Shown here: piece by piece, positions 3,202 to 50,554 of the stretch | Numbering within the stretch: the first letter of the stretch is position 1 | Layout of the letters: each line of letters opens with the position of its first letter | Assembly: GCF_000473165.1 (NCBI RefSeq) | Contig: NZ_AXBE01000014.1 | Coordinates: forward strand, 1-64,000 | Length of the DNA: 64,000 bases | Direction: 5' to 3' | From: Leisingera aquimarina DSM 24565 | Lineage (GTDB): Bacteria; Pseudomonadota; Alphaproteobacteria; Rhodobacterales; Rhodobacteraceae | Translations under genes and position numbers: made by a program | Notes under the pieces: generated by a model | The model's input: only the letters and a program-made list of their open reading frames with translations | What the model was told of the DNA's origin: nothing | The model's database searches: none

Positions 3202-4734
3202 ATGGCCCGCACACCCTCCCGCCGCGCCGGACGGCAAGAGCGCATGGCCGCCCGCGCTGCCCAGGGCGCGCTAGCGGCACCCTATACGATCCGAAAAACC
3301 GGCCTCTTCAGCCTGATCAATGACGAGGCGGTTGCCATCATCGAACGCAACGCCGACCGCATCCTGGACGAGATCGGCATGGACTTCCGCGGCGATCCGG
3401 AGACGCTGGAACTGTTCCGCAAACACGGCGCCAGGGTCGACGGTGAGCGGGTCCGGTTCGATCCCGGCTGGTGCCGCGACAAGATCAAGACCGCACCGCG
3501 CGTCTTTACCCAGCACGCCCGCAATCCGGCGCGCTCGGTGCAGATCGGCGGCGACGCGCAGGTCTACGCCCCCAGCTTCGGCCCTCCTTTTGTGCACGAC
3601 ATGGAAAAGGGCCGCCGTTACGCCACGCTGGAGGATTTCAAGAACATCACCAAGCTGCACCACCAATTGGGCGCGGTGAACCACTCCGGCGGGGTGGTGG
3701 TGGAGCCGGTCGATGTCCCCGTCGAGCTGCGCCACCTGCATATGGCGCACACGCATCTAACGCTGAATGACAAGCCCTTCATGGGCGCCGTCACCGCACC
3801 CGAACGCGCCCGCGACACCGTCGAGATGTGCCGCATCGCCATGGGGCGGGAGTTTGTCGACAACAACTGCGTGCTCTATTCCGTGGTCAACACCAACGCA
3901 CCCTTGGTGATGGACGAAACCATGCTTTGGGCGCTGAAGGAATATGCACAGGCTGGGCAATGCACCGTGGTCTCTCCTTTCGTCTTGGGCGGTGCAATGT
4001 CGCCGGTCTCAGTCGCCGCCACCCTGGCGCAGGTGCTGGCGGAGGTGATGGCCTCAGTCGCGCTGACCCAGTTGATCCGCCCCGGCGCGCCTGCGGCATT
4101 CGGCACGTTTTTCTCGCCGATCAGCCTGAAAACCGGCGCGCCGACCTTTGGCACACCGGAAGGCACCCAGTTTCAGATGTGCGCCAAAACACTGGCGGAC
4201 CGGCTAGGCCTTCCCTTCCACTCGGTCGGCGGGCTGACCGCGGCCAAGGTGCCGGACGCGCAGGCCGGCTATGAGAGCCAGGCGCAGCTGATGGGCGCGG
4301 CGCTTGCCGGCGTCAACTTCATAATCCATGCCACCGGCTGCCTGGAGGGGCTCTTGACCACTGGCTACGAGAAGATCGTGATGGACGCTGACCGCTGCTC
4401 CGCCATGCAGCGGTTCATCGGCGGCGTTGATTTCTCTGAAGCGGCACAGGCGATGGATGCGTTTTTCGAGGTGGAGCCGGGCGGCCATTTCCTCGGTGCC
4501 CAGCACACCCAGGACAACTACCAGACCGCCTTTTGGATGGGCGATATGTCCGACAACGGAACTTACGAACAATGGGCCGCCGAAGGCGCCGAATGGCAGC
4601 ACGAGCGCGCCAGCGCCCGGGTGAAACAGCTGCTCAATGACTACGAACACCCCGCAATGGACGACAGCATACGCGCGGCACTCGACGATTTCGTAGCCCG
4701 CCGCACCAAGGAGATCAAGGGAGGACACACATGA
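3202..4734 (+). CDS. MttB/MtgB-family methyltransferase without pyrrolysine (copy 1)
   Basis: This 510-residue protein belongs to the trimethylamine/glycine betaine methyltransferase superfamily. Characterised members (MttB with pyrrolysine, MtgB without) move a methyl group from a quaternary or tertiary amine to a corrinoid protein. The frame has no internal TAG, so this is a non-pyrrolysine type. Typical stretches include VVSPFVLGGAMSPVSVAATL, FFSPISLKTGAPTFGTPEG and DAQAGYESQAQLMGAAL. The start at 3202 is chosen because GGAGG precedes it by seven bases; an in-frame ATG at 3163 lacks such a site. Its last four bases overlap the aminotransferase start, so the two are translationally coupled. 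No corrinoid (MttC-like) or reactivase (RamA-like) gene is visible in the window, so the methyl acceptor is unknown. Confidence 0.88.
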   Translation: MARTPSRRAGRQERMAARAAQGALAAPYTIRKTGLFSLINDEAVAIIERNADRILDEIGMDFRGDPETLELFRKHGARVDGERVRFDPGWCRDKIKTAPRVFTQHARNPARSVQIGGDAQVYAPSFGPPFVHDMEKGRRYATLEDFKNITKLHHQLGAVNHSGGVVVEPVDVPVELRHLHMAHTHLTLNDKPFMGAVTAPERARDTVEMCRIAMGREFVDNNCVLYSVVNTNAPLVMDETMLWALKEYAQAGQCTVVSPFVLGGAMSPVSVAATLAQVLAEVMASVALTQLIRPGAPAAFGTFFSPISLKTGAPTFGTPEGTQFQMCAKTLADRLGLPFHSVGGLTAAKVPDAQAGYESQAQLMGAALAGVNFIIHATGCLEGLLTTGYEKIVMDADRCSAMQRFIGGVDFSEAAQAMDAFFEVEPGGHFLGAQHTQDNYQTAFWMGDMSDNGTYEQWAAEGAEWQHERASARVKQLLNDYEHPAMDDSIRAALDDFVARRTKEIKGGHT

Positions 4735-6038
4735 CCCTGCACACCGACTGGACCCTGACTGAGACCGCCGAACGGCGCGACAACTACTACGCCGCAAGCC
4801 AGCGCAAATTCATCCCCTTCAAGGATCCGATGGTCTTCAAGAAAGGGTCGATGCAGTACCTGTGGGACGTCGAAGGGCGCAAATACACCGATCTTCTGGG
4901 CATGAACGTCTGCATCTCGGTCGGGCATTCCCACCCCAAGGTGGTCGCCGCCGCAATGAGCCAAGCGCAGGAGCTGACCCATTGCACCACCATGTTCTAT
5001 CACCCCGTCCCGGCCCATTTTGCCGAGGAGCTGGCCGCCACCATGCCGAACCCCAACGGCGATATCGAATGGGTGGTGCATTTCACCAACTCAGGCTCCG
5101 AGGCGATCGACCTCGCCATGACCATGGCGCGCAGTTATACCGGCAATCTGGACCTGCTGGCCCTGCGCTCTGCCTATCACGGGCCGACGGCGGCGGCGCA
5201 ATCGATCACCGGTATCAGCGGCTGGCGCCATCCCGGCATGCCGGGCAACGTGGCCTTTGTTGCGGAGCCGAACCAGTACCGCGGCATCTTTGGCGCAGGT
5301 GTTGATCCCTACCTGGACGAGATCGAACGCACCATCCACACCGCCACAACAGGCCGCATTGCCGGCATGTTCATCGAAAGCGTGCAAGGCTACGGCGGCA
5401 TAATTGAGATGCCCAAAGGATACATGTACGGCGCCGCCGAACGGGTCCGCGCGGCAGGCGGGCTGCTGATTGCGGATGAAGTCCAGGCCGGGTTCGGGCG
5501 CACCGGCGATCACATGTGGGGGTTCGAGGCCGATGGCGTGATCCCCGACATTGTGGTGATGGCCAAAGGCATCGGCAACGGCTTCCCGCTGGGCGCCGTG
5601 GTCGCGCGCAAGGAAATCGCCGCCCCGATGGCGGAGAAATTCATGTTCCACACCTATGGCGCCAACCCGACCTCCTGCGCTGCCGGCCGTGCCGTGCTGC
5701 AGGTCCTCAAGGAAGACAAGGTGCAGGAAAACGCCCGCACCGTCGGCGCCGCCCTGCTGGAACGGCTGCACGCGCTGAAGGAAAAACACCCGGCGATCGG
5801 CGACGTGCGCGGCCGCGGCCTGATGCTTGCGATTGAAATGGTCAAGGACCGCAAGACCAAGGAACCGGATCCGCAAACCACTGCCGCTGTTTTTGAGGCG
5901 ACACGCGAAAGCGGGATTATCCTGTCAAAATCAGGCGCCTACCAGTCCTGCCTGCGCATGGTGCCGCCGATGTGCCTGTCAATGGCGAACGTCGATCAGG
6001 TTCACGACGGCCTCGACCGCGCGTTTGCCAGCCTCTGA
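4731..6038 (+). CDS. Class III PLP aminotransferase, AGXT2-like
   Basis: The 435-residue product is a fold-type I, class III aminotransferase. Visible marks are FTNSGSEAIDLAMTMAR (cofactor phosphate region, about residues 118-134), IADEVQAGFGRTG with the PLP-contacting aspartate near 249, and MAKGIGNGFPLGA with the Schiff-base lysine near 279. Overall it resembles alanine-glyoxylate aminotransferase 2, which also takes beta-alanine, beta-aminoisobutyrate and methylated arginines. The ATG overlaps the mttB-like stop by four bases. Coupling suggests it deaminates the primary amine left after N-demethylation; that is inference. The amino donor and acceptor cannot be read from sequence. Confidence 0.85.
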   Translation: MTLHTDWTLTETAERRDNYYAASQRKFIPFKDPMVFKKGSMQYLWDVEGRKYTDLLGMNVCISVGHSHPKVVAAAMSQAQELTHCTTMFYHPVPAHFAEELAATMPNPNGDIEWVVHFTNSGSEAIDLAMTMARSYTGNLDLLALRSAYHGPTAAAQSITGISGWRHPGMPGNVAFVAEPNQYRGIFGAGVDPYLDEIERTIHTATTGRIAGMFIESVQGYGGIIEMPKGYMYGAAERVRAAGGLLIADEVQAGFGRTGDHMWGFEADGVIPDIVVMAKGIGNGFPLGAVVARKEIAAPMAEKFMFHTYGANPTSCAAGRAVLQVLKEDKVQENARTVGAALLERLHALKEKHPAIGDVRGRGLMLAIEMVKDRKTKEPDPQTTAAVFEATRESGIILSKSGAYQSCLRMVPPMCLSMANVDQVHDGLDRAFASL

Positions 6039-6086
6039 CCCCTCGCCGCAAAAGAGATCCTTCATTCATCTGGATAATAATATCCT

Positions 6087-6125
6087 CGGGTAAACGAGGG
6101 GGCAGACAGCCCCCTCGTTTACCCG
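6087..6125. terminator. Long perfect hairpin between convergent genes (GC-rich Rhodobacteraceae-type repeat)
   Basis: Arms of 17 bases (6087-6103 and 6109-6125, CGGGTAAACGAGGGGGC and its complement) enclose a 5-base loop. The hairpin lies between the convergent aminotransferase and binding-protein genes, so it can serve as a bidirectional terminator. The bases just before it (AATATCCTCGGG) resemble the lead-in of the repeats at 16711 and 53251. Confidence 0.65.
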
Positions 6126-6146
6126 GACCAAGTCCAGGCGGGCCGG

Positions 6147-7184
6147 TCACTTCTTGAGATTGGTCCAAATCTGGTCATAGACCGCCTGCGTTTGCTGATC
6201 GCAGACCTCAATGAACACGCCATCGCCTGCGCCGGCATGGGGGCTCTTTTCCGGCTGCGCAGCCAGCGCCGGGTCCAGGAATTCGGCAACCCCGCTCACA
6301 CCGGCATTGTACTGCGCATAGTTGCTGACGGCTGCGATGTTTTCCGGCTCCAGCAGAAAATCCATGAATTTCAGCGCACTGTCACGATTGGGCGCGTCCT
6401 TCAGAAGCACCACATTGTCCATCCAGGCAACATAGCCTTGCGTGGGATAGGCGTATTCCACATTGGCGCCTTCCTCACGGGCCTTGGCTGCAAAGCCGTC
6501 ATAGATCTGCCCCACTGCCGCATCGCCAGACACAAGCACCTCCTTGGCGGTGTCGGAGTTGAAGGACGCCCAGTGCTGCTTGGCCGCCTGCAGCATCGCG
6601 TTCAGCGCCTTCAGCTGTTCGCGGTCGGTGGAGCACTGCGGGATACCCATATGCAGCGAGGCCATTGCAATAACCTCGCCCTGGCTGTCCAGCATGTTGA
6701 TCTTGCCCGACAATTCCGCCGGGGGCTCAAACAGGATGGCGGTGGTCTGAATGTCGCCGCCATAGGCATCCCGGTTCACCGCAAAGGATGTCGAGCCCCA
6801 CTGATACGGGATCGAGGACGCCCGGCCAGGATCGAAACTAGGATCGGCCCATTCCGGCGCGATGTTGCCCTTGTTGGCCAGCTCGCCGTCGGCGATGGTG
6901 TCCAGCAGGCCCTCGCCCGCCATGATGCTGACCATGTAATCGCCCGGCACCGCCAGGTCATAGGTGCCCATGCCGCCGGCCTTCAGGGTGGCCAGCATGG
7001 ATTCATTGGAATCGTAGGTGTCCATCGTCACCACGATGCCGGTTTCAGCGGTGAATTTCTCCAGCAGCTCTTGCGGCATGTATTCGAACCAATGATACAA
7101 GACCAGCTTGCCCTCGGCGGCGGCGGCATTGGCGGCAACGCTCAGCGCAAGGGCGGCGGCACTGGGTTTCAGCAGTTTTTTCAT
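6147..7184 (-). CDS. Polyamine-type ABC transporter substrate-binding protein
   Basis: The 345-residue precursor begins with a signal peptide (MKKLLKPSAAALALSVAANAAAA) and then LVLYHWFEYMPQELLEKF and TYDSNESMLATLKAG, the usual opening of PotD/PotF-type binding proteins. The start at 7184 has GGGAGG upstream; a longer frame to 7208 has none. It is the last gene of a four-gene transporter operon in the order ATPase, permease, permease, binding protein. The likely ligands are polyamines or related diamines taken from the periplasm; family assignment is firm, ligand is not. Confidence 0.88.
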   Translation of the reverse strand: MKKLLKPSAAALALSVAANAAAAEGKLVLYHWFEYMPQELLEKFTAETGIVVTMDTYDSNESMLATLKAGGMGTYDLAVPGDYMVSIMAGEGLLDTIADGELANKGNIAPEWADPSFDPGRASSIPYQWGSTSFAVNRDAYGGDIQTTAILFEPPAELSGKINMLDSQGEVIAMASLHMGIPQCSTDREQLKALNAMLQAAKQHWASFNSDTAKEVLVSGDAAVGQIYDGFAAKAREEGANVEYAYPTQGYVAWMDNVVLLKDAPNRDSALKFMDFLLEPENIAAVSNYAQYNAGVSGVAEFLDPALAAQPEKSPHAGAGDGVFIEVCDQQTQAVYDQIWTNLKK

Positions 7185-7204
7185 GATGTTCCTCCCGGGT
7201 TGGA

Positions 7205-8014
7205 TCATTTTGTGTTGTCGGATTTGCTGACGAAATAGCTGATGGTGACCATCACGACCGACACGCTCAGCAGCATGGTCGAGATCGCCATGATGTTGGG
7301 TTTGATGCCCTGCTTGACGGAGCCGAAGATCGCGGTCGGCAGGGTCTCAACACCGGCGCCCTTGACGAAATTGGTGATGATGAAGTCATCCAGCGAGACG
7401 ATGAAGGCCAGCAGGAAGCCCGAGATGATACCTGGCGCCATCAGGGGCATCAGAATCCGGGTAAAGGCCTGCCGCCGGGTCGCGTAAAGATCCATCGCCG
7501 CCTGCTCGAAACTGTCCTCGATCCCCTGCATCCGGGCCGAAATCGGCAGGTAGGCAAAGGGGATGCAGAAGGCGATATGGGCGACCAGGATGGTCAGGTA
7601 GCCGCGGGTGAAGCCGATGGCGTTGAAGAAGATCAGGGTGGCCACCGCGGTCACGATCTCCGGCACCATCAGCGGCAGGCTGATCAGGCCGAAGGAAACG
7701 GTGCGCAGTTTGAAATTGCCGCCGCGCACCATCGCCGTCGCTGCCAGCGTGGCAATTGCGGTGCTGGCGGTGGCTGCGATGATTGCGATGGTGAAGCTGT
7801 TGAAGGCCGCGGTCTTGAACTTGGCGCTTTCCGGGCCGGTGAACACATCGGCGTACCAGCGGAAACTGACCCCCTCCCAGTTGGTGATCGATTGGGAGGC
7901 GTTGAAACTGTAGATGGTGACAATCACCAGAGGGGCATAGAGCACCACCAGGCACAGCAGGGTGATCGCGCGAAAGCCTTTGTAGGTCTTTATGTCGTTG
8001 TTCACATGCGCCAT
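7205..8014 (-). CDS. potC: ABC transporter permease, PotC-like
   Basis: The 269-residue inner-membrane protein has about six hydrophobic segments and the cytoplasmic EAA loop that contacts the ATPase ([20 protein letters not shown], near residue 165). It lies three bases after the PotB-like gene and is followed by the binding-protein gene. It forms the second half of the translocation channel of this importer. Confidence 0.88.
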
Positions 8015-8017
8015 GGC

Positions 8018-8947
8018 TCAGCTCCCTGCCGTGTCTGCTTTGGCCTGCTGGCGGGCCGAGAACATCAGGATGATCAGCACCATGGTCAGCAGCACCATTG
8101 ATGCGGCGGCGCCGAACGGCCAGTTGCCGGCGTTGCCCTTGAATTGTTCCTCGATCAGCGAGCCAATCATGAAATTCTTGGCCCCGCCCAGAAGGTCCGG
8201 CGCCAGGAACGACCCCATTGAGGGCACAAACACCAGGATGCAGCCCGCCACCACGCCCGGCTTCACCGCGGGCAGCACAATGCGGCGCAGGGTGGTCCAT
8301 TTGCTGGCGTAAAGATCCGCCGCTGCCTCAGACAGCGAGAAGTTGTAGCGCTCCACCGCGGCATAGACCGGCAGCACCATGAACGGCAGGTAGGAGTAGA
8401 ACAGCCCCAGCTGCACGGCAAAGTTGGTGTTGACGATGTGGATGGGGCTGTCGATCAGCCCGGTGCCGATCAGGAAATCATTCAGCGGGCCTTGGTCCCG
8501 CAGCAGAAACTTCATCGAAACGGTGCGGATCAGCAGATTCACCCAATAGGGGATGGTGATCAGGAACACCCAGACGGGGCGCACATGTTCGGGCCGGGTG
8601 GCAATGAAATAGGCGGTCGGAAAGCCAATCACCAGGCTGAGGAGCGTCGCCGCCCCGGCCTGCCAGATCGAACGCCAGAAGATGGTGATATAGGTCCATT
8701 CAAGCTTGGCTGGCTCATCCCCGAACAGTCCGCGGTCAAAGAAGAACTGGTCATAGGCCGAAAGGCTGAACTCCCAGATCACCCCGCCGCGGAATTCCTT
8801 GGTCAGGAAAGAATAGATCAGCATCATGCAGACGGGACCCAGCACAAAGATGCCAAGCACCGCCCAGGACGGCAGCAGCAGCCAGCCGCGGGCGTCTTTA
8901 TATGTGTCTGCGCGGGCTGAGCCGCCGCTTGCTGCGCCTGCTGCCAT
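8018..8947 (-). CDS. potB: ABC transporter permease, PotB-like
   Basis: The 309-residue permease has a long N-terminal cytoplasmic tail, about six membrane segments and an EAA loop (SLSEAAADLYASKWTTLRRI). Its ATG shares one base with the ATPase stop codon (TGATG), so translation is coupled. With the PotC-like protein it builds the heterodimeric channel typical of spermidine/putrescine importers. Confidence 0.88.
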   Translation of the reverse strand: MAAGAASGGSARADTYKDARGWLLLPSWAVLGIFVLGPVCMMLIYSFLTKEFRGGVIWEFSLSAYDQFFFDRGLFGDEPAKLEWTYITIFWRSIWQAGAATLLSLVIGFPTAYFIATRPEHVRPVWVFLITIPYWVNLLIRTVSMKFLLRDQGPLNDFLIGTGLIDSPIHIVNTNFAVQLGLFYSYLPFMVLPVYAAVERYNFSLSEAAADLYASKWTTLRRIVLPAVKPGVVAGCILVFVPSMGSFLAPDLLGGAKNFMIGSLIEEQFKGNAGNWPFGAAASMVLLTMVLIILMFSARQQAKADTAGS

Positions 8948-10038
8948 CAGTCCATCAGGAGGCGCCCGGCCCCCAGCTCCATATTGACGAAAATCTCGCT
9001 GCCCGGCTCAAAGATCCGCTTGTTGCCGCGGTCGGAATTGGAGGTGCGCACGATGAACTGCGGCCCCTCGGCCAGATCGACCAGCGTACTGATGTCGGTG
9101 CCCACGAATATATTCTCGGCGACCCGGCCCTTCAGGCTCTCGGCCTCGACCGGCACGTCGGACATGAACAGCCGCTCGGGCCGCACCGACATATGCACTT
9201 TGGCGCCGGTCCCGATGCCCTCGACCGAATTGCAGGTCAGCGCCTGGCCGCCGCCCAGATGACAGGTGGCCCGGCCGTTCATGACCTGATCCACCGACAC
9301 CTCCAGCAGATTGGTCTCGCCGATGAAATCCGCCACAAACATGTTGCGCGGCTGCTCGTAGATCTCGGTCGGGGTGCCCAGCTGCTGCATCTCGCCCGCC
9401 GACATCACCGCGATGCGGTCGGACATGGTCAGCGCCTCTTCCTGATCGTGGGTCACAAAGATGAAGGTGATCCCGGTCTCTCGCTGCAGGTGCTTCAGCT
9501 CCAGCTGCATCTGCTTGCGCAGCTTCAGGTCCAGCGCCGACAGCGGCTCATCCAGCAGCAGGACTTTAGGTTGTGGCGCCAGCGCACGCGCCAGCGCCAC
9601 ACGCTGCTGCTGACCGCCTGAGAGCTGAGACGGCTTGCGGGCAGCGAATTGCGTCAGCTGGACCAGCTCCAGCATTTCCCCCGCGCGGGTGCGGGCCTCG
9701 GCTTTGGACTTGCCGCGCATCTCCAGGCCAAAGGCGACGTTTTCCAGGATCGTCATATGTGGAAACAAGGCATAATTCTGGAACACCGTGTTCACCGGCC
9801 GCTGATGCGGCGGCAGCTTTGCAATCGCTTCGCCAAACAGCAGGATCTCGCCTTCGGTCACATCCTCGAACCCGGCAATCATCCGCAAAAGCGTGGTCTT
9901 ACCGCAGCCAGAGGGTCCCAGCAGGGTGAAGAACTCATTGTCCTCGATGGTCAGCGAGATCCGCTTGAGGGCGGTGAAATCGCCATAGCGCTTGACCGCA
10001 TTGCGCACATCAATCGCATTTGTCGTGTTACCGGGCAC
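8947..10038 (-). CDS. potA: ABC transporter ATP-binding protein, PotA-like
   Basis: The 363-residue ATPase has Walker A (GPSGCGKTT), Q-loop, signature ([15 protein letters not shown]) and Walker B (VLLLDEPLSALD), then a C-terminal TOBE domain as in PotA. It is the first gene of the polyamine-type transporter operon. The 163-base gap before it, after the argE-like gene on the same strand, may hold a separate promoter, although I could not define one. Confidence 0.9.
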   Translation of the reverse strand: MPGNTTNAIDVRNAVKRYGDFTALKRISLTIEDNEFFTLLGPSGCGKTTLLRMIAGFEDVTEGEILLFGEAIAKLPPHQRPVNTVFQNYALFPHMTILENVAFGLEMRGKSKAEARTRAGEMLELVQLTQFAARKPSQLSGGQQQRVALARALAPQPKVLLLDEPLSALDLKLRKQMQLELKHLQRETGITFIFVTHDQEEALTMSDRIAVMSAGEMQQLGTPTEIYEQPRNMFVADFIGETNLLEVSVDQVMNGRATCHLGGGQALTCNSVEGIGTGAKVHMSVRPERLFMSDVPVEAESLKGRVAENIFVGTDISTLVDLAEGPQFIVRTSNSDRGNKRIFEPGSEIFVNMELGAGRLLMD

Positions 10039-10201
10039 TTGTGCCTCCCCCTCTGCCGCGTATCGTTAACCCAGCATAGGCAGCGGCGGGGGCTTGCTTA
10101 AGAATTGACTCCCTCAGCAAATGTTAGTCTTTGCCTAACCTTTGAAATTCATTTGTTTTCCAATAGTTGCACAGGGTTTTCCTGATCTGGCAGGTACTGG
10201 C

Positions 10202-11341: not shown

Positions 11342-11343
11342 CG

Positions 11344-13413: not shown

Positions 13414-13504
13414 TTTTCCTCTCCTTCGGGCAACAGCACTCAAAAGGTACAGGACCGCGCCAGAGGCGAAAGTTGCGCTTACGGAACCATTGGTTAGCCG
13501 CGGC

Positions 13505-38024: not shown

Positions 38025-38041
38025 TCGCTTCAGCCGGACCG

Positions 38042-39724: not shown

Positions 39725-40502
39725 GCCGAGGGCCTCCAGTTTTTGAGATCAGTCAGAATTTTGGTGAGATGGGTGCGCAGTTTGTCCGCGCGCTCCGGCA
39801 GGTAGGTCCAGGAAGGGCATTCCTGGCAGTAGGTGGCCTGCGCCAGCTCCATCTGGATCGCGTGCAGGCCTTCGGCAGGGCGGCCATAGTGGCGGGTGGT
39901 CCAGCCGCCCTTGAAACGCCCGTTGAGAACCGAGGTATAGCCCTCAGCGCCCGCGCAATTGGCCACGGTCATGGCCTCAATCGCCGGATCGCAGGTTTCG
40001 CCATTGTTGGTGCCGGTGTTGAAATCCGGCAGGCGGCCTTCGAACAGGAACGGGATATCGCCCCGGATCGAGTGGCAGTCATACAGGATGGCAAAACCAT
40101 GAATGGCCTTCACCCGCTCCAGTTCTGCCGTCAGCGCCGTGTGGTAAGGCGCATGATAGGCGGCGCGGCGGCGCGTGATTTCCGCCTCGTCCGGCTCCTG
40201 CCCGTCGCGCCAGATCGGCAGCCCGTCGAAATCGGTCAGCGGCACCAGAGTGGTGGTGTTTTGCCCAGGATAGAGACTGATTCCAGCGGGATCGCGGTTC
40301 ACGTCAATCACATAGCGGTGGATCGGCGTGCGGACGGTTGTCACCTCCTCAACCAGCCCGGCATAGAGGTCGTGGATATGCCAATCGGTATCCGCCAGCG
40401 CCTGGCCGGTTTCATTAAGGCACTCCCGGATATCCGGCGGCACATCGGTGCCAGTGTGGGGCAGCCCCAGCACCAGAGGGGAGCTGCCTTGGGTCACTTC
40501 GA

Positions 40503-40506
<4 letters not shown>
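39721..40506 (-). CDS. hutG: N-formylglutamate deformylase HutG
   Basis: The 261-residue protein begins [18 protein letters not shown] and has [11 protein letters not shown] and [17 protein letters not shown], as in N-formylglutamate amidohydrolase. It releases glutamate from N-formylglutamate, the product of the route through HutF. HutF (formiminoglutamate deiminase) is not in the window. It overlaps both neighbours by four bases. Confidence 0.94.
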
Positions 40507-42022
<1,516 letters not shown>

Positions 42023-42026
<4 letters not shown>

Positions 42027-43231
42027 TGGGTGCCCTCATAGATACGGGTGTAAAGCGGGTTGAAGCCGATGCGGTAGGCAAGCTCACCGGGCGTTTCCAC
42101 GTCCCAGACCGCCAGATCGGCGCGCATACCGGCAGAAATTTGACCGCGGTCATTTAGACCCAGCGCGCGTGCGGCATTGCAGGTGACACCGGCCAGCGCC
42201 TCCTCCGGCGTCATGCGGAACAGGGTGCAGCCCATGTTCATGGTCAGCAGCAAGGATGTCAGCGGCGAGGAACCGGGGTTGCAATCGGTCGCCAGCGCCA
42301 TCGGCACGCCGTGGCTGCGGAAATGTTCAATCGGCGGCGCCTGGGTTTCGCGGATGGTGTAAAACGCGCCCGGCAGGATCACCGCAACGGAGCCAGCGGC
42401 AGCCATCGCCCTGGCGTCGTCTTCGGTCGCGTATTCCACATGATCAACTGACAATGCGCTGTACTGCGCCGCCAGTGCGGTGCCGCCCTGATGGCTCAGC
42501 TGCTCGGCGTGCAGCTTGACCGGCAGGCCCAGCTCCTGCGCAACTTTGAACACCCGTTCGATCTGCGCAGGCGCAAAGGCTATGTTCTCACAGAAGCCAT
42601 CCACCGCATCGGCCAGCCCCTCCGCATGGGCAGCGCGCAAGGCGGGAATGCAGACCTCGTCAATGTAGGCGTCATCCCGGCCCTTGTACTCCGCCGGGGT
42701 GGCATGTGCGCCAAGGAAAGTGGTCTTAACTGTCACTGGGCGCAGTTCGCCCAGACGGCACGCGGCGCGCAGCATGTTCAGCTCGGTTTCGCGGTCCAGC
42801 CCGTAGCCGGACTTCACCTCCACCACCGTCGCGCCTTCAGCAATCAGCGCATCCAGCCGCGGCAGTGCGTCTTTCACCAGATCCTCCAGCGATGCGGTGC
42901 GGGTCGCGGACACGGTGGAGACGATGCCGCCCCCTGCCCTTGCGACCTCTTCATACGAGGCGCCGTTCAGACGCATCTCGAATTCCATCGCCCGGTTGCC
43001 GCCAAAGACGATATGGGTGTGGCAGTCGATCAGCCCCGGCGTCACCAGCCGGCCGCCCAGATCGCGCTGCTCCCAAGAAAAATTGTCAGCTGGCAATTTT
43101 TCCCGCGGACCGGCCCAGACAATCCTGCCGCCGGAAACCGCAACCGCACCGTCCTCGATCAAGCCATAAGGCGCGTCCGTCCCAGCCATAGTGGCCAGAC
43201 GTGCGCCGGTCAGAACAAATTCCCCAGTCAC
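42023..43231 (-). CDS. hutI: Imidazolonepropionase HutI
   Basis: The 402-residue amidohydrolase has the metal motif [13 protein letters not shown] and [12 protein letters not shown], as in HutI. It opens the imidazolone ring to formiminoglutamate. The start is GTG at 43231, preceded by AGGGA. It is the first gene of the four-gene operon, so the hut promoter lies in the 91-base gap before it. Its 5' coding region contains an imperfect parS-like palindrome (43077-43102). Confidence 0.95.
43077..43102. other. Imperfect parS-like palindrome inside hutI
   Basis: The core ATTGTCAGCTGGCAAT matches the palindromes beside repC except for one base (G for A at 43093). Symmetry extends over 26 bases apart from that mismatch. 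It lies within the hutI coding sequence, about 1.7 kb from the other copies. Confidence 0.55.
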
Positions 43232-43322
43232 AGAATCCCTAAGTCCCTTTACTTCCGTTTCGGCAATAAACTACTGAAATAGGTGATTATGTCTAGGCAT
43301 AAAGTATGGCAGCTCTCCTGCC

Positions 43323-44648: not shown

Positions 44649-44746
44649 GGTGCGGCGTGTTCCTTTTGCTGTAAAGACCCCGTCACTGTGGTCATCCTGC
44701 GGTGGCGAAAGCAATGGATTGATTTGCCGTAGCAATGCGGCAGATT

Positions 44747-44770
44747 AGAAATTGTCAGCTGACAATTTCT
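44747..44770. other. Probable parS site
   Basis: A perfect 24-base palindrome with core AAATTGTCAGCTGACAATTT. It belongs to the same family as the sites at 44872 and 45007. Confidence 0.8.
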
Positions 44771-44871
44771 GCAGCGGCGTCCGGGCCGGGACCGGAAAGA
44801 TAGGGCCCGTCTATGCCAGGAAACACCCCGCTGCCGGCCTCCGGCTTTGCCGTGAATTTCAGCGGCGGGCA

Positions 44872-44893
44872 ATAGTTGTCAGCTGACAACTAT
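44872..44893. other. Probable parS site (best consensus match)
   Basis: A perfect 22-base palindrome. Its 16-base core GTTGTCAGCTGACAAC fits the repABC partition-site pattern GTTNNCNGCNGNNAAC exactly, as I recall that consensus. Confidence 0.85.
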
Positions 44894-45006
44894 GCTCCGA
44901 GGCATCGATGCAAGCCGTTCCCTAGCGAACTGTCTGGCGGAGTTTCCGCAGCAGACAGAGAACCGATCCGGGCCTGAGCTGCCAAAGACCCCCCCTATGC
45001 TCCAAA

Positions 45007-45028
45007 AAAATTGTCAGCTGACAATTTT
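45007..45028. other. Probable parS site overlapping the repC stop codon
   Basis: A perfect 22-base palindrome with core AAATTGTCAGCTGACAATTT. The repC stop codon (TGA on the minus strand, 45014-45016) is inside it, so the last codons of repC are part of the palindrome. Confidence 0.8.
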
Positions 45029-46156
45029 CGCCCGGTGGCCTGTCTGCAGCAGCGCATTCAGCATTGGCGCAGTAGAAAATTGACCGGTACGCGCCTTCTG
45101 CGCCAGTCGCCGGAGATAGGCGCCGGGACTGCGGATGGTGCTGAGTTTCTCCAGGATGCACATAACCGCGGTTGCGGCCTCCTTGCGGCCCATCGCTGCG
45201 CGCGCGTCGCTGAGCACAGGCATCTCGATACCGATCATCGGTGAAATCTTCTCGGCTATGCGGTCGGCATCCTGCCAGCTGCGCAACCGGTCAGGATAGT
45301 AGGTTTGCACTTCCGGGCAGGCACGCAGGACGGTGGCCAGTTCGCTGTTTTTCTCTGCCTTGCTGTCCTCAGCGGCTGAACGCGCAGGCTGTTTGGAGGG
45401 CTGTCCGGCCTGCGCCCCTTCAGAGTCAGAATCTTTTTTTATTGAATCCTGTATGTGCCGCTCATTCTGGCTGCCGGGGCCGCTCAAAATGCGTGCAGGC
45501 AGCTTAGCGGCCCGCGGGGATTCTTCGGGTGTACGGCTGGCAATTTCACTGCGCAGCGTTTGGGCCGCCTGGGTCAATTCGGCTTCGCAGGGCTTGCGGC
45601 GCAACAGTTTGCGCACAGTCTCCAGCAGCACCTCTGCCGTGCCATCTGCCAGTTCCAGAAGTTCTTGCCGCAACACGGCAACCCGGTCGCGCAGCACCGC
45701 CAAATGCTCGGCACGGGCTTTGGCATCCAGCGCCGCATCAAAGATCTGGCAGGCATGGCAGGCGAGGGGCGACAGATCAAAGCCAAAGGCGAGCGGCATG
45801 TCATCGCCCGTGCGCCGGGCATAGCGTTTGCGGTTGGGACTGTTCTTCCGGCTGACAATTCCCAGCTTGGTGAGGGCGGCCAGGTGGCGGCGCAGGGTGC
45901 TCTCGGGCATCCCGTTCAACCGCTCCATCAGCTTGCGGTTCGACGGGAATACAATGGCGCTGCCCGGTTCCGCAGGCAGCGCCCGGTCCGGGAAAAAGGT
46001 CAGCAATGCCTTCAGCACGCCAAGGGTGCGGTGGCTCAGTTCAAATTCCGCGGCGGCGTGCGTCAGCGCAGCCAGAAGGTCCCACTTGTCGTGAGTACCT
46101 GCCAGCCGGCCGCACGGATCCTGCCGCCCAAATGCGATTTGGGACGTCTGTTCCAT
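45014..46156 (-). CDS. repC: Plasmid replication initiator RepC
   Basis: The 380-residue protein has the RepC layout. An N-terminal winged-helix region (HRTLGVLKALLTFFPDRAL, IVFPSNRKLMERLNGMPEST, LRRHLAALTKLGIVSRKNSP) is followed by a variable linker and a C-terminal part (VMCILEKLSTIRSPGAYLRRL). In repABC plasmids RepC is the initiator and the origin lies inside its gene. It is the third gene of repABC, separated from repB by 182 bases that encode an antisense RNA. Confidence 0.93.
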   Translation of the reverse strand: MEQTSQIAFGRQDPCGRLAGTHDKWDLLAALTHAAAEFELSHRTLGVLKALLTFFPDRALPAEPGSAIVFPSNRKLMERLNGMPESTLRRHLAALTKLGIVSRKNSPNRKRYARRTGDDMPLAFGFDLSPLACHACQIFDAALDAKARAEHLAVLRDRVAVLRQELLELADGTAEVLLETVRKLLRRKPCEAELTQAAQTLRSEIASRTPEESPRAAKLPARILSGPGSQNERHIQDSIKKDSDSEGAQAGQPSKQPARSAAEDSKAEKNSELATVLRACPEVQTYYPDRLRSWQDADRIAEKISPMIGIEMPVLSDARAAMGRKEAATAVMCILEKLSTIRSPGAYLRRLAQKARTGQFSTAPMLNALLQTGHRAKIVS

Positions 46157-46206
46157 GTTATTTTCACGAAAGACAAAGAATTCCCGCCCCCATGCGGCGC
46201 ATGGAG

Positions 46207-46236
46207 TTGACAGTAACGAGTCTGAAGGGCTATTCC
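46207..46236 (+). promoter_or_regulatory. Promoter of the repABC counter-transcribed RNA
   Basis: TTGACA at 46207-46212 and TATTCC at 46231-46236 are separated by 18 bases, on the strand opposite to repC. A terminator follows about 23 bases later, as expected for a short antisense RNA. Confidence 0.65.
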
Positions 46237-46240
46237 AAAG

Positions 46241-46296
46241 GTGCTAAATCTGAGAACGGCCTTCTGGGATGTAATGTCCTGGGGGGCTTTTCTTTT
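46241..46296 (+). ncRNA. repABC antisense RNA (ctRNA, incompatibility determinant)
   Basis: The region between repB and repC encodes a short RNA opposite to the rep operon. It ends in a stem of 11 pairs, some of them G-U (46259-46269 with 46277-46287), a 7-base loop and a T-rich run (46288-46296, TTTTCTTTT). In repABC plasmids such a ctRNA binds the repC leader and limits its expression, setting copy number and incompatibility. The exact 5' end is estimated from the promoter. Confidence 0.75.
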
Positions 46297-46338
46297 GCCT
46301 GTTTACGTGCCTCCTGTCCTTAGTGTTTCTGCTCTTGC

Positions 46339-47313
46339 TCAGTCTTCCGGCTGCTCGGGCTGGTCTTGCTGCCAGCGGCCGTGAAGCTCTTCCATGATCT
46401 CTTCTGCATGGGCGTCGAACCAAGCGTCAAAGCCAGGCGCGTCCTTGGCAGAGATCGTCAGGGTAATGCCTTTGGCGGTGGACCTGATACCTGCAACCTC
46501 AGCGCCGCCGCTGCCGGGCAGGCCACGGGTCTTCGGCGGGGCAGGGGCGGGTTTCGGTTCCTGCGGCACGTTCCGGGCATGTTTCAGAACGGCCTCGAAC
46601 CGCCCGTCGGAGTCATAGGTCGTAAAGTCGGGCCGGTTTGTTCTGGTGATCGCCCGGGCCCGTGCTGCGGAATCGTCGAACAGTTTGACCAGCATCATCC
46701 AGCGGTCGCGGCCAATGCCGGGGGCTGAACCGATCGTCCGCAGGAAGGGCAAATCAAAGGCCGTGCCAACCTTGAGCATCCGCGACACCATCGGCAGGTC
46801 GATCGACAGCGCCGCGGCAATTGTCTGCCGTCCATAGCCATCTGCCTGGAGCTGCGCCGCAAAGGCGGCTTTTTCAATGAAACTGAGATCCTGGCGCGAG
46901 GTGTTCTCTTGGCCCTGGGCCATCACCAGCGCATGATCATCCAGCTGCCGCACCATCGCCTTCACGGGCAGGCCCAGCTCGCGCAGCGCCTTCAGGCGGC
47001 GGCGGCCATAGACGATTTCGAACCGCCCTTGTGTCTTGGGGTGCGGGCGCAGCAGCACCGGCACCTGCTGGCCATAGGTCTGCAGGCTGTCCTTCAACTG
47101 GTTGAAAGCCACCCCGTCCATGCCCAGGCGGTCCTCATAGCCCGCATCGTCGATCAACGCAGTGTCGATCTCCTGCACTGCGCTTTCCTGCAGCTTGCTG
47201 AGCGAGGATTGCAGCGCCCCGACCGCGCCGCGCGGCATCATTTTGGGTTTCGGCCCGCCAGCGGATGCTGCGGGGCTGTTCAGGGCTGTGCTGAGAATGC
47301 CTTTGCGTGCCAT
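46339..47313 (-). CDS. repB: Plasmid partition protein RepB (ParB family)
   Basis: The 324-residue protein has the ParB/Srx N-terminal domain (YGQQVPVLLRPHPKTQGRFEIVYGRRRLKALRELG), then ALVMAQGQENTSRQDLSFIEKA and an HTH (YGRQTIAAALSIDLPMVSRMLKVG). It binds parS palindromes. The start at 47313 overlaps the repA stop (TGATG) with GGAGG five bases before it; the upstream ATG at 47325 is less likely. Confidence 0.93.
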   Translation of the reverse strand: MARKGILSTALNSPAASAGGPKPKMMPRGAVGALQSSLSKLQESAVQEIDTALIDDAGYEDRLGMDGVAFNQLKDSLQTYGQQVPVLLRPHPKTQGRFEIVYGRRRLKALRELGLPVKAMVRQLDDHALVMAQGQENTSRQDLSFIEKAAFAAQLQADGYGRQTIAAALSIDLPMVSRMLKVGTAFDLPFLRTIGSAPGIGRDRWMMLVKLFDDSAARARAITRTNRPDFTTYDSDGRFEAVLKHARNVPQEPKPAPAPPKTRGLPGSGGAEVAGIRSTAKGITLTISAKDAPGFDAWFDAHAEEIMEELHGRWQQDQPEQPED

Positions 47314-48488
47314 CAACGCCTCCATGCGTGTTGAAGGAGCGATTCTATTTCATCGTTAACTTGATTCAGTGAATCGACCGCACGGTCATAGGTTGACCTG
47401 TGAAACTGGGATCTTTCGACCTCATAGACCGTCTGCTGGGTCAGCCCCGCGTCGGAAATCGCGGTGGATTTCAGCATCGGCGCGACCATGACTTCCTCGC
47501 CGAACAGCTGCCGCATGAAGGCAACGACCTGTTGCTGCGGGCCGTCGTTTGGCTCGTAACGGTTGATCAGGAAGCGAAGAAAATCAAACTCAAGCGCGGC
47601 GCCCGCATTCGAGACCACATCCAGCAGTTCGGCTGACATTTGCAGGAACTGCGACATTGAGGCGATGTCGAGCATGTTCGGCACCACGGTGATGATCACG
47701 CCAGTCGAGGCACAGAGCGCCGACATGGTCAGATAGCCCAGCTGCGGCGGGCAGTCGAAGATGATCACGTCGTAATCCTTCTCGACCTCCTCGAGCGCTG
47801 CGGCCATGCGCGAGAAAAATGCAGGTTGAACGTTGTTCAGAAGCGCCTGCGGGGTCTCGTGCTCAAATTCCTGCAGGATCAGCCCGCCGGGGGCCAGATC
47901 CAGACCGCTGAAATAGGTCTGCTGAATGATTTGGCGCAGGGGCAGGGGGTCTTCATAGCGGATTGCGTCATAAATCGTCCCTGTTTCAAGGAAATCGACC
48001 TCGGGCCGATAGCCGAAAAGCGTCGTCAGCGACGCCTGCGGGTCGATATCCACCGCCAGCACCCGGTAGCCTTTCAAGGCCAGCCGTTGCGCGGTATGAA
48101 TCGATGACGTGGTCTTGCCCGATCCGCCCTTGAAGTTCAGGAACGACAGCACCTGCACCTTGTCGCCGTCGCGGCGGCCGCGCAGGTAGGTGCCGGGCGT
48201 CTTGGCCGCGGCATCCAGGATCTTGCGCATTTCCAACAGATCGGCGGCGGAATAGTGGCGCCGCCCGCCTGGCGTGGTGTGAACCTCGGGGAACTTACCG
48301 TCAAAATGCAGCTTGCGCAGGAAACTGGAGGAAATGCCCAGCATCTCTGCCGCCTCGCCCGCGCTGAACAGGCGCAATTCCTTCCTTGCATCCGGCGCAA
48401 AACTCGCCAGCATGTGGCTTTCGAGGGCCGCACTGAGGCTTTCCGCGTTCTCGCGGATTCGCTGATTGATGTGGAGTGCTACTGCCAA
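47313..48488 (-). CDS. repA: Plasmid partition ATPase RepA (ParA family)
   Basis: The 391-residue protein has an N-terminal MerR-like HTH (FSAGEAAEMLGISSSFLRKLHFDGKFPEVHTTPGGRRHYS) and a ParA ATPase with the deviant Walker A KGGSGKTT (residues 120-127). It drives segregation and represses the rep operon. The start is TTG at 48488, preceded by AGAGGGCAGCAG. It is first in the repABC operon. Confidence 0.93.
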   Translation of the reverse strand: MAVALHINQRIRENAESLSAALESHMLASFAPDARKELRLFSAGEAAEMLGISSSFLRKLHFDGKFPEVHTTPGGRRHYSAADLLEMRKILDAAAKTPGTYLRGRRDGDKVQVLSFLNFKGGSGKTTSSIHTAQRLALKGYRVLAVDIDPQASLTTLFGYRPEVDFLETGTIYDAIRYEDPLPLRQIIQQTYFSGLDLAPGGLILQEFEHETPQALLNNVQPAFFSRMAAALEEVEKDYDVIIFDCPPQLGYLTMSALCASTGVIITVVPNMLDIASMSQFLQMSAELLDVVSNAGAALEFDFLRFLINRYEPNDGPQQQVVAFMRQLFGEEVMVAPMLKSTAISDAGLTQQTVYEVERSQFHRSTYDRAVDSLNQVNDEIESLLQHAWRR

Positions 48489-48997
48489 CTGCTGCCCTCT
48501 CGATAGTAACGCTGTTTTGCGTCAGCGCTTTATTTATCGTTTCTATACGCAATGCGAACAGTGTTTTGCAATAGATTCCTTCGTTTACAGGTTGCAGGCG
48601 GGGTTCCGGAGTTGCACCCGTGCGGCGCGTTCTGCCTGAGATTTTGCTCTAAGTTGTTGAAATAAAATACTATAATTTAGGGGTAGGAGCTATCCAAGAA
48701 GAAGCGTGTTACTCCGCCCTCAGTGTACATGATCCGCAGTGGGGCGCAGCGGGTGAGTCGCTGCAGTTCAGCGATTTCTCCAGAAATAGACCGAAACAGG
48801 CTCTACTTAGGGTCTATTATGCTGCTGTGCGGCCTCAGCACCGATGTGGGAACGCCCCATAGCCGTACTTTGCAAATGGAACAAGGTACAAGCCGGTTCC
48901 CCTGGATGGAGTGTCGGTTTTTGCAACCGTATTTCGTAATCCTGCAGGTGAAACCGCATTCATTAGGTGAAACTCTCCGCCAAAGGAGACCCCTGCC
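48489..48997. other. Intergenic region between repA and the second mttB-like gene
   Basis: This 509-base gap holds the divergent repA promoter and the leader of the mttB-like gene. Near repA an inverted repeat (CGCTG / CAGCG, about 48511-48528) may be a RepA operator. The middle part (48600-48960) has no supported gene; a short open frame from 48723 overlaps the mttB start and lacks family features. Its base composition is lower in GC than the genes around it. Confidence 0.5.
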
Positions 48998-50554
48998 ATG
49001 ACTGAGCAAGCCACTGCCCCCCGCGCCCGCTCCGGCGGCCGCAACGCCCGCCGCGCCCTGCGCACAGCACCCAAATTCGACATGCTGCCGGGCCTCACCC
49101 GCAATATCCCCCTGTGCGAGGTGATGGACGGCGCCCAGGTTGAGATGATCGACAACGCCTCGATGGATATTCTGGAAAACGTGGGTGTCCAATTCCGCGA
49201 CCCGATTGCGCTGGAGGACTGGAAACGCGCCGGCGCCAAGGTTGAGGGCGAGCTGGTCTATCTGGACCGCGGTCTGGTGCGCGAGCTGATCGCCACCATC
49301 CCCAGCGATTTCACCTATCACGCGCGCGATCCGCAAAAGAGCGTGCGTCTGGGCGGCAAGCATTCGATTTTTGTGCCGATGACCGGCGCGCCTTTTCTGC
49401 GCGATCTTGACGACGTGCGCCGGAACCCGATGCTGGACGACTTGGCGATGTTCCACAAGCTGGCGCATATGATGCCGTCCTTGCATTCTTCGGCGCATCA
49501 CATCGTAGAACCTTATGATCACCCGATCAGCCAGCGGCACCTGCGCATCACCTATTCGTCGATGAAATACTCGGACAAGACGTTTATGGGCATGACCACT
49601 AGCCCAAAGAACGCCGAGGATGTGCTGGACATGTGCGCGATCCTGTTCGGCGCCGATTTCATCGACCAGAACCCGGTCACCACCGGCAATTGCAACGGCA
49701 ACTCGCCGCTGGTCTGGGACGAAACCATGCTGGGCGCCATGCGCGCCTTCTGCCGCCGCAACCAGCCGGTTCTGTGCTCACCCTTTGTGCTGGGCGGCGC
49801 CAACACCCCGGCGTCGGTGCCCGCCACGGTGGCGCAGCTGAACGCCGAGGCGCTGTCGGCGCTGGCCTATACGCAGGTGATCCGCAAGGGCGCGCCTGCG
49901 ATCTATGGCCACTACCTGTCCACCGTCAGCATGAAATCCGGCGCGCCGATGGCCGGCACGCCTGAAATCAGCCTGATGAACTTTATGATCGGCCAGATGG
50001 CGCGGTACTATGGCGTGCCCTGGAGGACCTCCAACACATTGGGCGGCGCCAAAACGTTTGACGCGCAGGCGGGGTACGAATCCGCCACCACCCTGCAGGC
50101 GGTGATGCATGCGGGCGCCAACTATGTCTGGCATTCGGCGGGCTGGAACGAGGCCGGGATGCATTGTTCCGTCGCCAAGTTCATCGTCGACGCCGAGCAA
50201 TGCGCGATGGCCTACCGGATGGCGGAAGGGCCGAAATGGCACGACTTCGACCAGGCGCTCTCGGCTGTTCCCGATGTTGGCCCCGGCGGCCACTACCTGG
50301 GCCACCCGCACACGCAGGAAAACTTCCAGGAGGCGTTCTTCATGCCGGAAATGTTCGACAACAACTCGATCGAGCAATGGCAGGCCGAGGGCGGCGTTGA
50401 GATCACCGAACGCGCCCTGACCCGCGCTAAGAAGCTGCTGGCGGAGTACCAGGAACCGAAGCTGGACGAGGCGAAGAACGAAGAACTGCTCGACTACATC
50501 GCCCGGCGCGAGCGGGAAATCCCCGCCGCGGATGAGCTGAACCAGAGCTACTGA
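48998..50554 (+). CDS. MttB/MtgB-family methyltransferase without pyrrolysine (copy 2)
   Basis: The 518-residue protein is a second member of the trimethylamine/betaine methyltransferase superfamily, with no in-frame TAG. Marks shared with the copy at 3202 include CSPFVLGGANTPASVPATV, SMKSGAPMAGTPE, DAQAGYESATTLQAVMHAGANYVWHS and PGGHYLGHPHTQENFQEAF. AAAGGAG precedes the ATG by 10 bases. A strong terminator follows, so it is a single-gene unit. It neighbours the HpbD-like epimerase, pointing to demethylation of a proline-type or other betaine; no corrinoid protein is encoded nearby. Confidence 0.88.
   Translation: MTEQATAPRARSGGRNARRALRTAPKFDMLPGLTRNIPLCEVMDGAQVEMIDNASMDILENVGVQFRDPIALEDWKRAGAKVEGELVYLDRGLVRELIATIPSDFTYHARDPQKSVRLGGKHSIFVPMTGAPFLRDLDDVRRNPMLDDLAMFHKLAHMMPSLHSSAHHIVEPYDHPISQRHLRITYSSMKYSDKTFMGMTTSPKNAEDVLDMCAILFGADFIDQNPVTTGNCNGNSPLVWDETMLGAMRAFCRRNQPVLCSPFVLGGANTPASVPATVAQLNAEALSALAYTQVIRKGAPAIYGHYLSTVSMKSGAPMAGTPEISLMNFMIGQMARYYGVPWRTSNTLGGAKTFDAQAGYESATTLQAVMHAGANYVWHSAGWNEAGMHCSVAKFIVDAEQCAMAYRMAEGPKWHDFDQALSAVPDVGPGGHYLGHPHTQENFQEAFFMPEMFDNNSIEQWQAEGGVEITERALTRAKKLLAEYQEPKLDEAKNEELLDYIARREREIPAADELNQSY

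What the first reader, a model, noticed from the sequence alone, without database searches (positions are those of the whole stretch)
3202..50554. Two pyrrolysine-free MttB homologues without a corrinoid partner
Members at 3202-4734 and 48998-50554 belong to a family whose characterised enzymes (MttB, MtgB) hand methyl groups to a small corrinoid protein. I find no B12-binding MttC-like protein and no RamA-like reactivase in the 64 kb, and the host looks like an aerobic marine bacterium. Both lie beside betaine or methylamine genes. They may use tetrahydrofolate directly, use a distant corrinoid protein, or do a different reaction.
Basis: partly seen in the sequence, partly recalled or inferred. 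Interest (0 to 1): 0.72.

Follow-up and report, generated by a model that had tools for sequence, protein, structure and literature searches.

The report
Plasmid betaine demethylases sharing chromosomal B12 hub
Two plasmid genes of a Leisingera-like marine bacterium look like enzymes that strip a methyl group from betaine-type nutrients; their vitamin-B12 partner is probably not missing but sits once on the chromosome, shared with methionine synthesis, so the gap is explained while what each enzyme eats remains open.

Summary
Both genes are real, full-length, pyrrolysine-free MttB-superfamily genes on a RepABC plasmid. The 64 kb holds no corrinoid protein and no reactivase. 'Without a corrinoid partner' is a window artefact: contig C1 carries one MtgC-type corrinoid protein, with DUF1638, MtgE, MtgD and one RamA-type activase; the two other B12-domain proteins are acyl-CoA mutases. 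The genome holds 13 full-length MttB homologues. Among 100 family genomes, 91 of 94 with MttB have MtgC; 4 of 6 without MttB lack it. In Ruegeria pomeroyi MtgC is known to be essential for glycine-betaine demethylation and methionine synthesis (PMC12478193). New here are the substrate modules. Copy 1 sits in a conserved cassette: two dimethylglycine-dehydrogenase-like genes, LysR, MttB, class III PLP enzyme. Copy 2 sits with an FAD oxidase, ALDH and DHDPS protein in 39 of 47 loci, in some with an SDR pair and an enolase closest to 4-hydroxyproline-betaine 2-epimerase. Most likely copy 1 starts full demethylation of an acyclic trimethylammonium compound and copy 2 that of a cyclic (hydroxy)proline-type betaine. 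Substrates and partner use are inferred.

The parts
2..2077 (-). Dimethylglycine/sarcosine-dehydrogenase-like flavoprotein (DAO + FAO_M + GCV_T); runs off the left end of the window
   Evidence: Pfam; frame open at window end; 743-aa frame if contig C7 is circular; found next to copy 1 in 37 of 37 orthologous loci
2135..3100 (+). LysR-type regulator of cassette 1
   Evidence: present in 35 of 37 orthologous loci
3202..4734 (+). MttB copy 1, pyrrolysine-free MttB-superfamily methyltransferase, 510 aa
4731..6038 (+). Class III PLP enzyme (aminotransferase or phospho-lyase), overlapping copy 1 by 4 bases
   Evidence: present in 36 of 37 orthologous loci
48998..50554 (+). MttB copy 2, pyrrolysine-free MttB-superfamily methyltransferase, 518 aa
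50621..51724 (+). Enolase-superfamily protein closest to 4-hydroxyproline-betaine 2-epimerases; K163, D193, E218, D241, K265 present
   Evidence: (4e8g 555 bits, 4h2h 490 bits); identity of 4H2H from PMC11961199 passage; in 7 of 47 copy-2 loci
51739..52473 (+). SDR family oxidoreductase 1
   Evidence: in 16 of 47 copy-2 loci, together with SDR 2 in 15 of 47
52470..53204 (+). SDR family oxidoreductase 2
   Evidence: in 16 of 47 copy-2 loci, together with SDR 1 in 15 of 47
53301..54641 (-). DAO-type FAD oxidoreductase, weakly like L-pipecolate oxidase
   Evidence: in 39 of 47 copy-2 loci
54638..56137 (-). Aldehyde dehydrogenase
   Evidence: in 40 of 47 copy-2 loci
56141..57058 (-). DHDPS-superfamily lyase/deaminase
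   Evidence: in 40 of 47 copy-2 loci
57069..57968 (-). GntR/FCD regulator (start uncertain)
   Evidence: in 36 of 47 copy-2 loci
57876..58955 (+). GlxA-type AraC regulator at the edge of cassette 2 (start uncertain)
   Evidence: in 13 of 47 copy-2 loci

Best explanation
Both copies are corrinoid-dependent N-methyltransferases that take the first methyl from a quaternary ammonium compound and pass it to the cob(I) form of the single MtgC encoded on contig C1. MtgD moves it to tetrahydrofolate, RamA and possibly DUF1638 keep the cobalt reduced, and MtgE draws on the same MtgC for methionine. The plasmid supplies substrate-specific modules, the chromosome the hub. Copy 1: MttB removes one methyl of an acyclic trimethylammonium compound, the two DMGDH-like enzymes remove the other two, and the class III PLP enzyme acts on the primary amine. 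Copy 2: MttB removes one of the two N-methyls of a cyclic betaine, probably a (hydroxy)proline betaine whose stereochemistry is set by the HpbD-like epimerase in some genomes; the FAD oxidase, DHDPS-family deaminase and ALDH would carry the ring on to a 2-oxoglutarate-type product. Shown: gene content, uniqueness of MtgC, co-occurrence, cassette conservation. Inferred: partner use by these two copies, reaction order and substrates.
For: One PF02607 protein in the genome; of three PF02310 proteins it is one and the other two are mutases. Its best NCBIfam match is MtgC (197 bits, below the cut-off of 370) and it has DIHDIG, a DxHxxG motif (motif meaning recalled). One RamA/RACo protein; MtgD over the PRK07535 cut-off and MtgE over the PRK07534 cut-off. 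94 of 100 family genomes have MttB, 93 of 100 have MtgC; 91 both, 3 MttB only (two of these 76 and 82% complete), 2 MtgC only, 4 neither (Fisher p 1.3e-4). In at least 10 of 100 genomes an MttB lies within 10 kb of MtgC (searches compared by eye; match list cut, so a lower bound). L104 and L106 hold MttB, MtgC and MtgE within 8 kb; on Paracoccus and Sinorhizobium replicons an MttB 52-55% identical to copy 1 lies less than 1 kb from MtgC. Cassette 1 is conserved in 37 orthologous loci; the FAD oxidase, ALDH and DHDPS genes of cassette 2 occur together in 39 of 47. 10 of 19 DMGDH-like genes lie within 5 kb of an MttB; 0 of 5000 random placements gave as many. Published: R. pomeroyi MtgC and MtgD needed for glycine betaine use and methionine (PMC12478193).
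Against: No corrinoid, MtgD, MtgE or RamA gene was found in the fetched stretches of the 37 copy-1 and 47 copy-2 loci, so nothing ties these two clades to MtgC except co-occurrence and homology. MtgC may be retained for methionine synthesis alone: 2 of 6 MttB-free genomes keep it, and G088, a 99% complete genome, has one MttB but only a match in a MetH-sized frame. The Fisher test ignores relatedness. HpbD is present in only 7 of 47 copy-2 loci, 7 of 47 lack the whole FAD oxidase/ALDH/DHDPS set, and 6 of 13 other HpbD-like loci lack MttB. The copy-2 ALDH and DHDPS proteins reach no hydroxyproline-specific family. MtgC and RamA fall below the NCBIfam cut-offs for their types.
Confidence: 0.82

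Rival explanations
1. The two MttBs hand the methyl group straight to tetrahydrofolate, without corrinoid.
For: No corrinoid gene in the cassettes. DMGDH-like neighbours of copy 1 carry a GCV_T folate domain, and the C2 paralogue lies beside a GCV_T-only protein.
Against: Pfam shows only PF06253 in both. The nearest characterised structure, 2qne MtgB, is a corrinoid-linked glycine betaine methyltransferase (39% identity; function from passages of PMC9842639 and PMC12155760 and from PMC12478193). MttB-bearing genomes nearly always have MtgC, 91 of 94.
Confidence: 0.05
2. Copies 1 and 2 are catalytic and corrinoid-dependent, but with substrates other than those proposed (for copy 1 many are possible: phosphocholine, beta-alanine betaine, gamma-butyrobetaine, trimethylaminoethylphosphonate; for copy 2 pipecolate betaine or a betaine that is not cyclic).
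For: The PLP enzyme's best solved relatives are phospho-lyases, 277 and 224 bits, but racemases and 4-aminobutyrate aminotransferase follow at 223 and 217. The copy-2 FAD oxidase is weakly like L-pipecolate oxidase, 110 bits. E. limosum MttBs take phosphocholine, gamma-butyrobetaine, carnitine and proline betaine (PMC12155760 and PMC8604678 passages). HpbD is absent from 40 of 47 copy-2 loci.
Against: The HpbD-like enolase with its five catalytic residues favours a hydroxyproline-type betaine where present.
Confidence: 0.4
3. The clades are non-catalytic or do another reaction.
For: No biochemical data on either clade turned up in the listings of the paper searches.
Against: Full-length domain, 73-95% identity among orthologues across genera and conserved catabolic cassettes.
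Confidence: 0.07
4. Each copy uses its own unrecognised corrinoid carrier.
For: Some relatives carry further MtgC-like proteins (G040, G064).
Against: The own genome has one PF02607 protein and three PF02310 proteins, two of them mutases.
Confidence: 0.04

Closest known systems
MtgBCDE glycine betaine demethylase / split methionine synthase of Ruegeria pomeroyi DSS-3 (PMC12478193)
   Same: Same kinds of parts: MtgC, MtgD, MtgE, RamA, DUF1638 and MttB-family donors, in an aerobic marine roseobacter; the authors note up to seven PF06253 genes and suggest other substrates.
   Different: Copies 1 and 2 are other clades than the own C1:2905625 gene, which groups with MttBs of which two of four lie near mtgC; they sit in other catabolic cassettes on a plasmid; 13 full-length paralogues here. 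R. pomeroyi sequences were not compared.
MtgB of Desulfitobacterium hafniense (PDB 2qne, 9yce)
   Same: Full-length homology, 39% identity of both copies to 2qne, Leu at the Pyl position.
   Different: Anaerobe with its own mtgA and mtgC (as told in PMC12478193).
Eubacterium limosum MtpB/MtcB/MtyB with shared corrinoid protein MtqC (PMC8604678, PMC12155760, passages)
   Same: Several substrate-specific non-Pyl MttBs feeding one corrinoid protein and one THF methyltransferase.
   Different: Anaerobic acetogen; the passages read do not say whether the carrier also serves methionine synthesis; sequences not compared here.
4-hydroxyproline betaine 2-epimerase HpbD (4H2H)
   Same: The enolase beside copy 2 scores 490-555 bits to this group and keeps the KDEDK residues. 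That 4e8g belongs to the same group is recalled.
   Different: The known hpb pathway is recalled to use Rieske-type demethylases; no Rieske motif was found at the 13 other HpbD-like loci fetched (the pattern does find the Rieske protein of the window).

Membership tests
MttB superfamily (PF06253) | Full-length PF06253 domain | tested here: met
   673 and 720 bits, cut-off 25
Pyrrolysine MttB (TIGR02369) | In-frame TAG/Pyl and score over the equivalog cut-off | tested here: not met
   No in-frame stop; 246 and 276 bits against 525; Leu at the Pyl position
Non-Pyl quaternary amine:corrinoid methyltransferase | Corrinoid protein, reactivase and THF methyltransferase in the genome | tested here: met
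   MtgC, RamA, MtgD on C1
Non-Pyl quaternary amine:corrinoid methyltransferase | Methyl transfer from a quaternary amine to Co(I) corrinoid | not testable with these tools
   Needs enzyme assay
Glycine betaine MtgB proper | Orthology to the characterised glycine betaine enzymes | tested here: inconclusive
   39% to 2qne; both copies form clades apart from own C1:2905625; R. pomeroyi MtgB sequences not compared
MtgC corrinoid protein (own C1 gene) | B12-binding_2 cap plus B12-binding domain with DxHxxG | tested here: met
MtgC corrinoid protein (own C1 gene) | NCBIfam MtgC curated cut-off | tested here: not met
   197 bits against 370; PMC12478193 reports the roseobacter type as distinct from that of the anaerobes
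RamA-type activase (own C1 gene) | RACo linker, middle and C-terminal domains and an N-terminal Cys cluster | tested here: met
   below the NCBIfam cut-offs
HpbD 4-hydroxyproline betaine 2-epimerase (copy 2 neighbour) | KDEDK catalytic residues and closest similarity to 4H2H-type proteins | tested here: met
   best NCBIfam model is cis-3-hydroxyproline dehydratase, 273 bits against a cut-off of 500
Classical hpb pathway (recalled) | Rieske demethylase at the locus | tested here: not met
   No Rieske motif in ORFs of at least 200 aa at 13 other HpbD-like loci; pattern found in 4 of 47 copy-2 loci and in the window protein 60063-61289, which is not part of the conserved set tested

The most novel reading that the evidence does not exclude
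Aerobic Rhodobacterales run a modular B12 methylotrophy: many plasmid- or chromosome-borne MttB modules (13 here), each specific for one quaternary amine and many paired with their own downstream demethylases, all discharge into one MtgC that also makes methionine. Copy 2 would be a cobalamin-dependent (hydroxy)proline-betaine demethylase in aerobes, and copy 1 the entry to a three-methyl stripping line (MttB plus two DMGDH-like enzymes plus a PLP enzyme).
Probability: 0.45. Interest if true: 0.62.

Novelty: new member of a known kind. Interest (0 to 1): 0.42.

Why it matters
The apparent paradox (corrinoid enzymes with no corrinoid partner in an aerobe) largely disappears, and the loci become a concrete list of substrate predictions. 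If right, one vitamin-B12 carrier limits both methionine synthesis and the use of several algal betaines, and plasmids can add new betaine diets without bringing their own B12 machinery. That ties B12 supply to nutrient turnover by marine bacteria and gives two widespread, experimentally tractable cassettes.

Tried and rejected
Considered and rejected: a plasmid-borne corrinoid partner (no PF02310, PF02607 or PF14574 match on C7). The + strand ORF 41-2068 as a gene: no Pfam match; the minus-strand frame over it is a DMGDH-like protein. HpbD as a core part of cassette 2: present in only 7 of 47 loci, each time with both SDRs. A Rieske demethylase as the usual partner of HpbD: no motif at 13 loci, with the window's own Rieske protein as positive control for the pattern, run only afterwards. 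Calling the copy-1 PLP enzyme a phospho-lyase: scores do not separate it from aminotransferases and racemases. The Pot-type ABC transporter 6147-10038 as part of cassette 1: PotB, PotC and PotD found in 2 of 37 orthologous loci, both Leisingera; matches to the ATPase PotA alone, 39-68% identical, appear in further loci and were not followed. The enolase as cis-3-hydroxyproline dehydratase: 273 bits against a cut-off of 500; not excluded outright.

Led nowhere: paper searches for homarine and for phospho-lyases; a paper looked up by a recalled DOI was not held. No structure prediction was run, since solved relatives cover nearly the whole length. Neighbours of the six HpbD-like loci without MttB were sampled with ten proteins from five of them only.
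Full report
The observation. The two ORFs are real and complete. Window 3202-4734 and 48998-50554 (+) translate without internal stops and end in TGA. Each matches PF06253 end to end (673 and 720 bits). Both fall under the pyrrolysine-MttB cut-off, and the residue aligned to Pyl334 is Leu in both, as in D. hafniense MtgB. Their nearest solved relatives are 4yyc (559 bits for copy 1, 507 for copy 2), then 2qne/9yce, glycine betaine methyltransferase. The window is the first 64 kb of contig C7 (182 kb) of a 5.34 Mb assembly in 8 contigs. C7 carries RepABC genes; the nearest plasmid record is Leisingera sp. M658, 91% identical over 97% of 45000-56200.

The missing partner. A search of the window's own genome finds three PF02310 proteins. 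Two are mutases of 709 and 736 aa with an MM_CoA_mutase domain; the third is a 232-aa protein with B12-binding_2 and B12-binding domains and the motif DIHDIG. It is also the only PF02607 match at E <= 0.001, which argues that the genome has no MetH of the usual kind. A DUF1638 gene lies next to it. MtgE (PF02574; NCBIfam PRK07534, 607 bits against 338) lies about 5 kb away; MtgD (PRK07535, 408 bits against 259) is at C1:3086239. One RamA/RACo protein is at C1:2977863. All of these are on C1 (4.25 Mb); none is on C7.

What is published. PMC12478193 (parts 1-4 of 6 read) shows with mutants of Ruegeria pomeroyi DSS-3 that MtgC and MtgD are needed for methionine synthesis and for growth on glycine betaine, names MtgE, RamA and DUF1638 as further parts, and suggests that the several PF06253 genes (up to seven) serve other methylated compounds. 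In Eubacterium limosum several MttBs with different substrates share one corrinoid protein (PMC8604678 and PMC12155760, passages). The hub idea is therefore not new.

How general the link is. The own genome has 13 full-length PF06253 genes and one fragment: six full-length on C1, one on C2, two on C5, four on C7. Among 100 family genomes, 94 have PF06253 matches at E <= 1e-40; the median is 3.5 per genome and the highest count 13, reached by two genomes (scoring stopped at 13 candidates, so the top counts of relatives may be low). 93 have an MtgC at 384 bits or more. 91 have both; G008, G068 and G088 have MttB only (G008 and G068 are 82% and 76% complete); G042 and G074 have MtgC only; G023, G046, G083 and G094 have no MttB and show only a weaker MtgC match in a frame of 910-1293 aa. 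Fisher p is 1.3e-4, with no correction for relatedness. In at least 10 of the 100 genomes an MttB lies within 10 kb of mtgC (searches compared by eye; the match list was cut, so this is a lower bound). Of the four more distant hits of the copy-1 scan (50-51% identical), two, L104 and L106, carry MtgC and MtgE within 8 kb; the own C1:2905625 gene is 77-83% identical to these four. In the plasmid collection 180 records hold an MttB at E <= 1e-60 to copy 1 and 15 hold an MtgC at that limit, so at most 15 of the 180 carry both. No Leisingera record is among the 15, against 17 Leisingera records with MttB. On replicons of Paracoccus aminovorans, P. methylovorus and Sinorhizobium the two genes are less than 1 kb apart.

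Cassette 1. A scan of named genomes gave 41 loci, 37 of them 75-95% identical to copy 1, in Leisingera, Ruegeria, Roseovarius, Shimia, Paracoccus, Defluviimonas, Tabrizicola and others. In these 37 the first DMGDH-like gene is found in 37, the second in 35 (the two misses are contigs of 5.5 and 4.3 kb), LysR in 35 and the class III PLP enzyme in 36; MtgC, MtgD, MtgE and RamA in none of the fetched stretches, at most 8 kb each side. In the window the first DMGDH-like gene is the minus-strand frame 2-2077, which leaves the window; the second lies at the far end of C7. More widely, 10 of the genome's 19 DMGDH-like genes lie within 5 kb of an MttB (one of them only if C7 is circular) and 7 of 13 MttBs are so placed; random placement within contigs gave means of 1.3 and 1.1, and 0 of 5000 trials reached either value. 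At 3 kb the counts are 6 and 6, reached in 2 and 0 of 5000 trials. A C5 paralogue repeats MttB - class III PLP enzyme - DMGDH-like. My reading: one methyl to MtgC, two to folate through the flavoproteins, then removal of the amine. One MttB plus two demethylases matches a trimethylammonium group. This is inference.

Cassette 2. The enolase after copy 2 is closest to 4e8g (555 bits) and 2pmq/4h2h (490 bits). 4H2H is 4-hydroxyproline betaine 2-epimerase with a KDEDK motif (PMC11961199 passage); the window protein has all five residues (read against the alignment). Copy-2 orthologues occur in 52 of 197 family genomes. Of the 51 other than the own I examined 47 neighbourhoods, counting a neighbour at 40% identity or more: ALDH in 40, DHDPS in 40, FAD oxidase in 39, GntR in 36; FAD oxidase, ALDH and DHDPS together in 39, none of the three in 7, both SDRs in 15, HpbD in 7 and each time with both SDRs, MtgC, MtgD, MtgE or RamA in 0. 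G068, G078, G090 and G102 were not examined. From the other side, 7 of 13 other HpbD-like loci carry MttB 2 and the SDR pair, 6 do not. In Cereibacter sphaeroides 2.4.1 plasmid pB the cassette is followed by a glycine betaine/proline-type ABC transporter. The FAD oxidase is weakly like L-pipecolate oxidase (110 bits against a cut-off of 600). A cyclic betaine fits best; hydroxyproline betaine is the leading guess, and only where HpbD is present is it specific.

Phylogeny. In a FastTree of the 13 own paralogues, selected orthologues and solved chains, copies 1 and 2 fall in the MtgB-like half in separate clades; four own genes form a divergent clade and a fifth (C5:142072) stands apart. The tree is small and several inner nodes are weak.

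Verdict. The puzzle is explained by scale: plasmid modules plus a B12 hub on the main contig. The enzymes are new members of a known kind. The two cassettes did not turn up in the listings of the paper searches, a library that lacks most subscription journals. The rest is biochemistry.

Noticed in passing
window 41-2068 (+) against 2-2077 (-): A long spurious + strand ORF overlies a real minus-strand DMGDH-like gene that crosses the left end of the window and, if C7 is circular, the contig junction.
   Followed up: yes
L020 (G000:C7:78300-91800): Another C7 MttB sits by an MmgE/PrpD protein, hydantoinase A and B genes and a DMGDH-like gene: a further module of unknown substrate.
   Followed up: partly
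L019 (G000:C2:131300-144800): The frame of the C2 MttB overlaps that of a GCV_T-only protein of 422 aa, a folate-type partner without the flavin domain.
   Followed up: no
L027 (G000:C1:1597434-1597766): A short MttB match of 111 profile positions, possibly a pseudogene remnant.
   Followed up: no
G088: A 99% complete relative with one MttB but no strong MtgC, only a match in a MetH-sized frame: a place to look for an MttB that uses MetH or another acceptor.
   Followed up: no
L051, L052, L061: HpbD-like enolases without MttB lie directly beside a zinc alcohol dehydrogenase in three of six such loci, hinting at a different use of this epimerase family.
   Followed up: partly
window 42023-43231 and upstream: An imidazolonepropionase gene near the RepABC region; the related Leisingera sp. 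M658 plasmid has hutU, hutG, hutH and hutI there.
   Followed up: no
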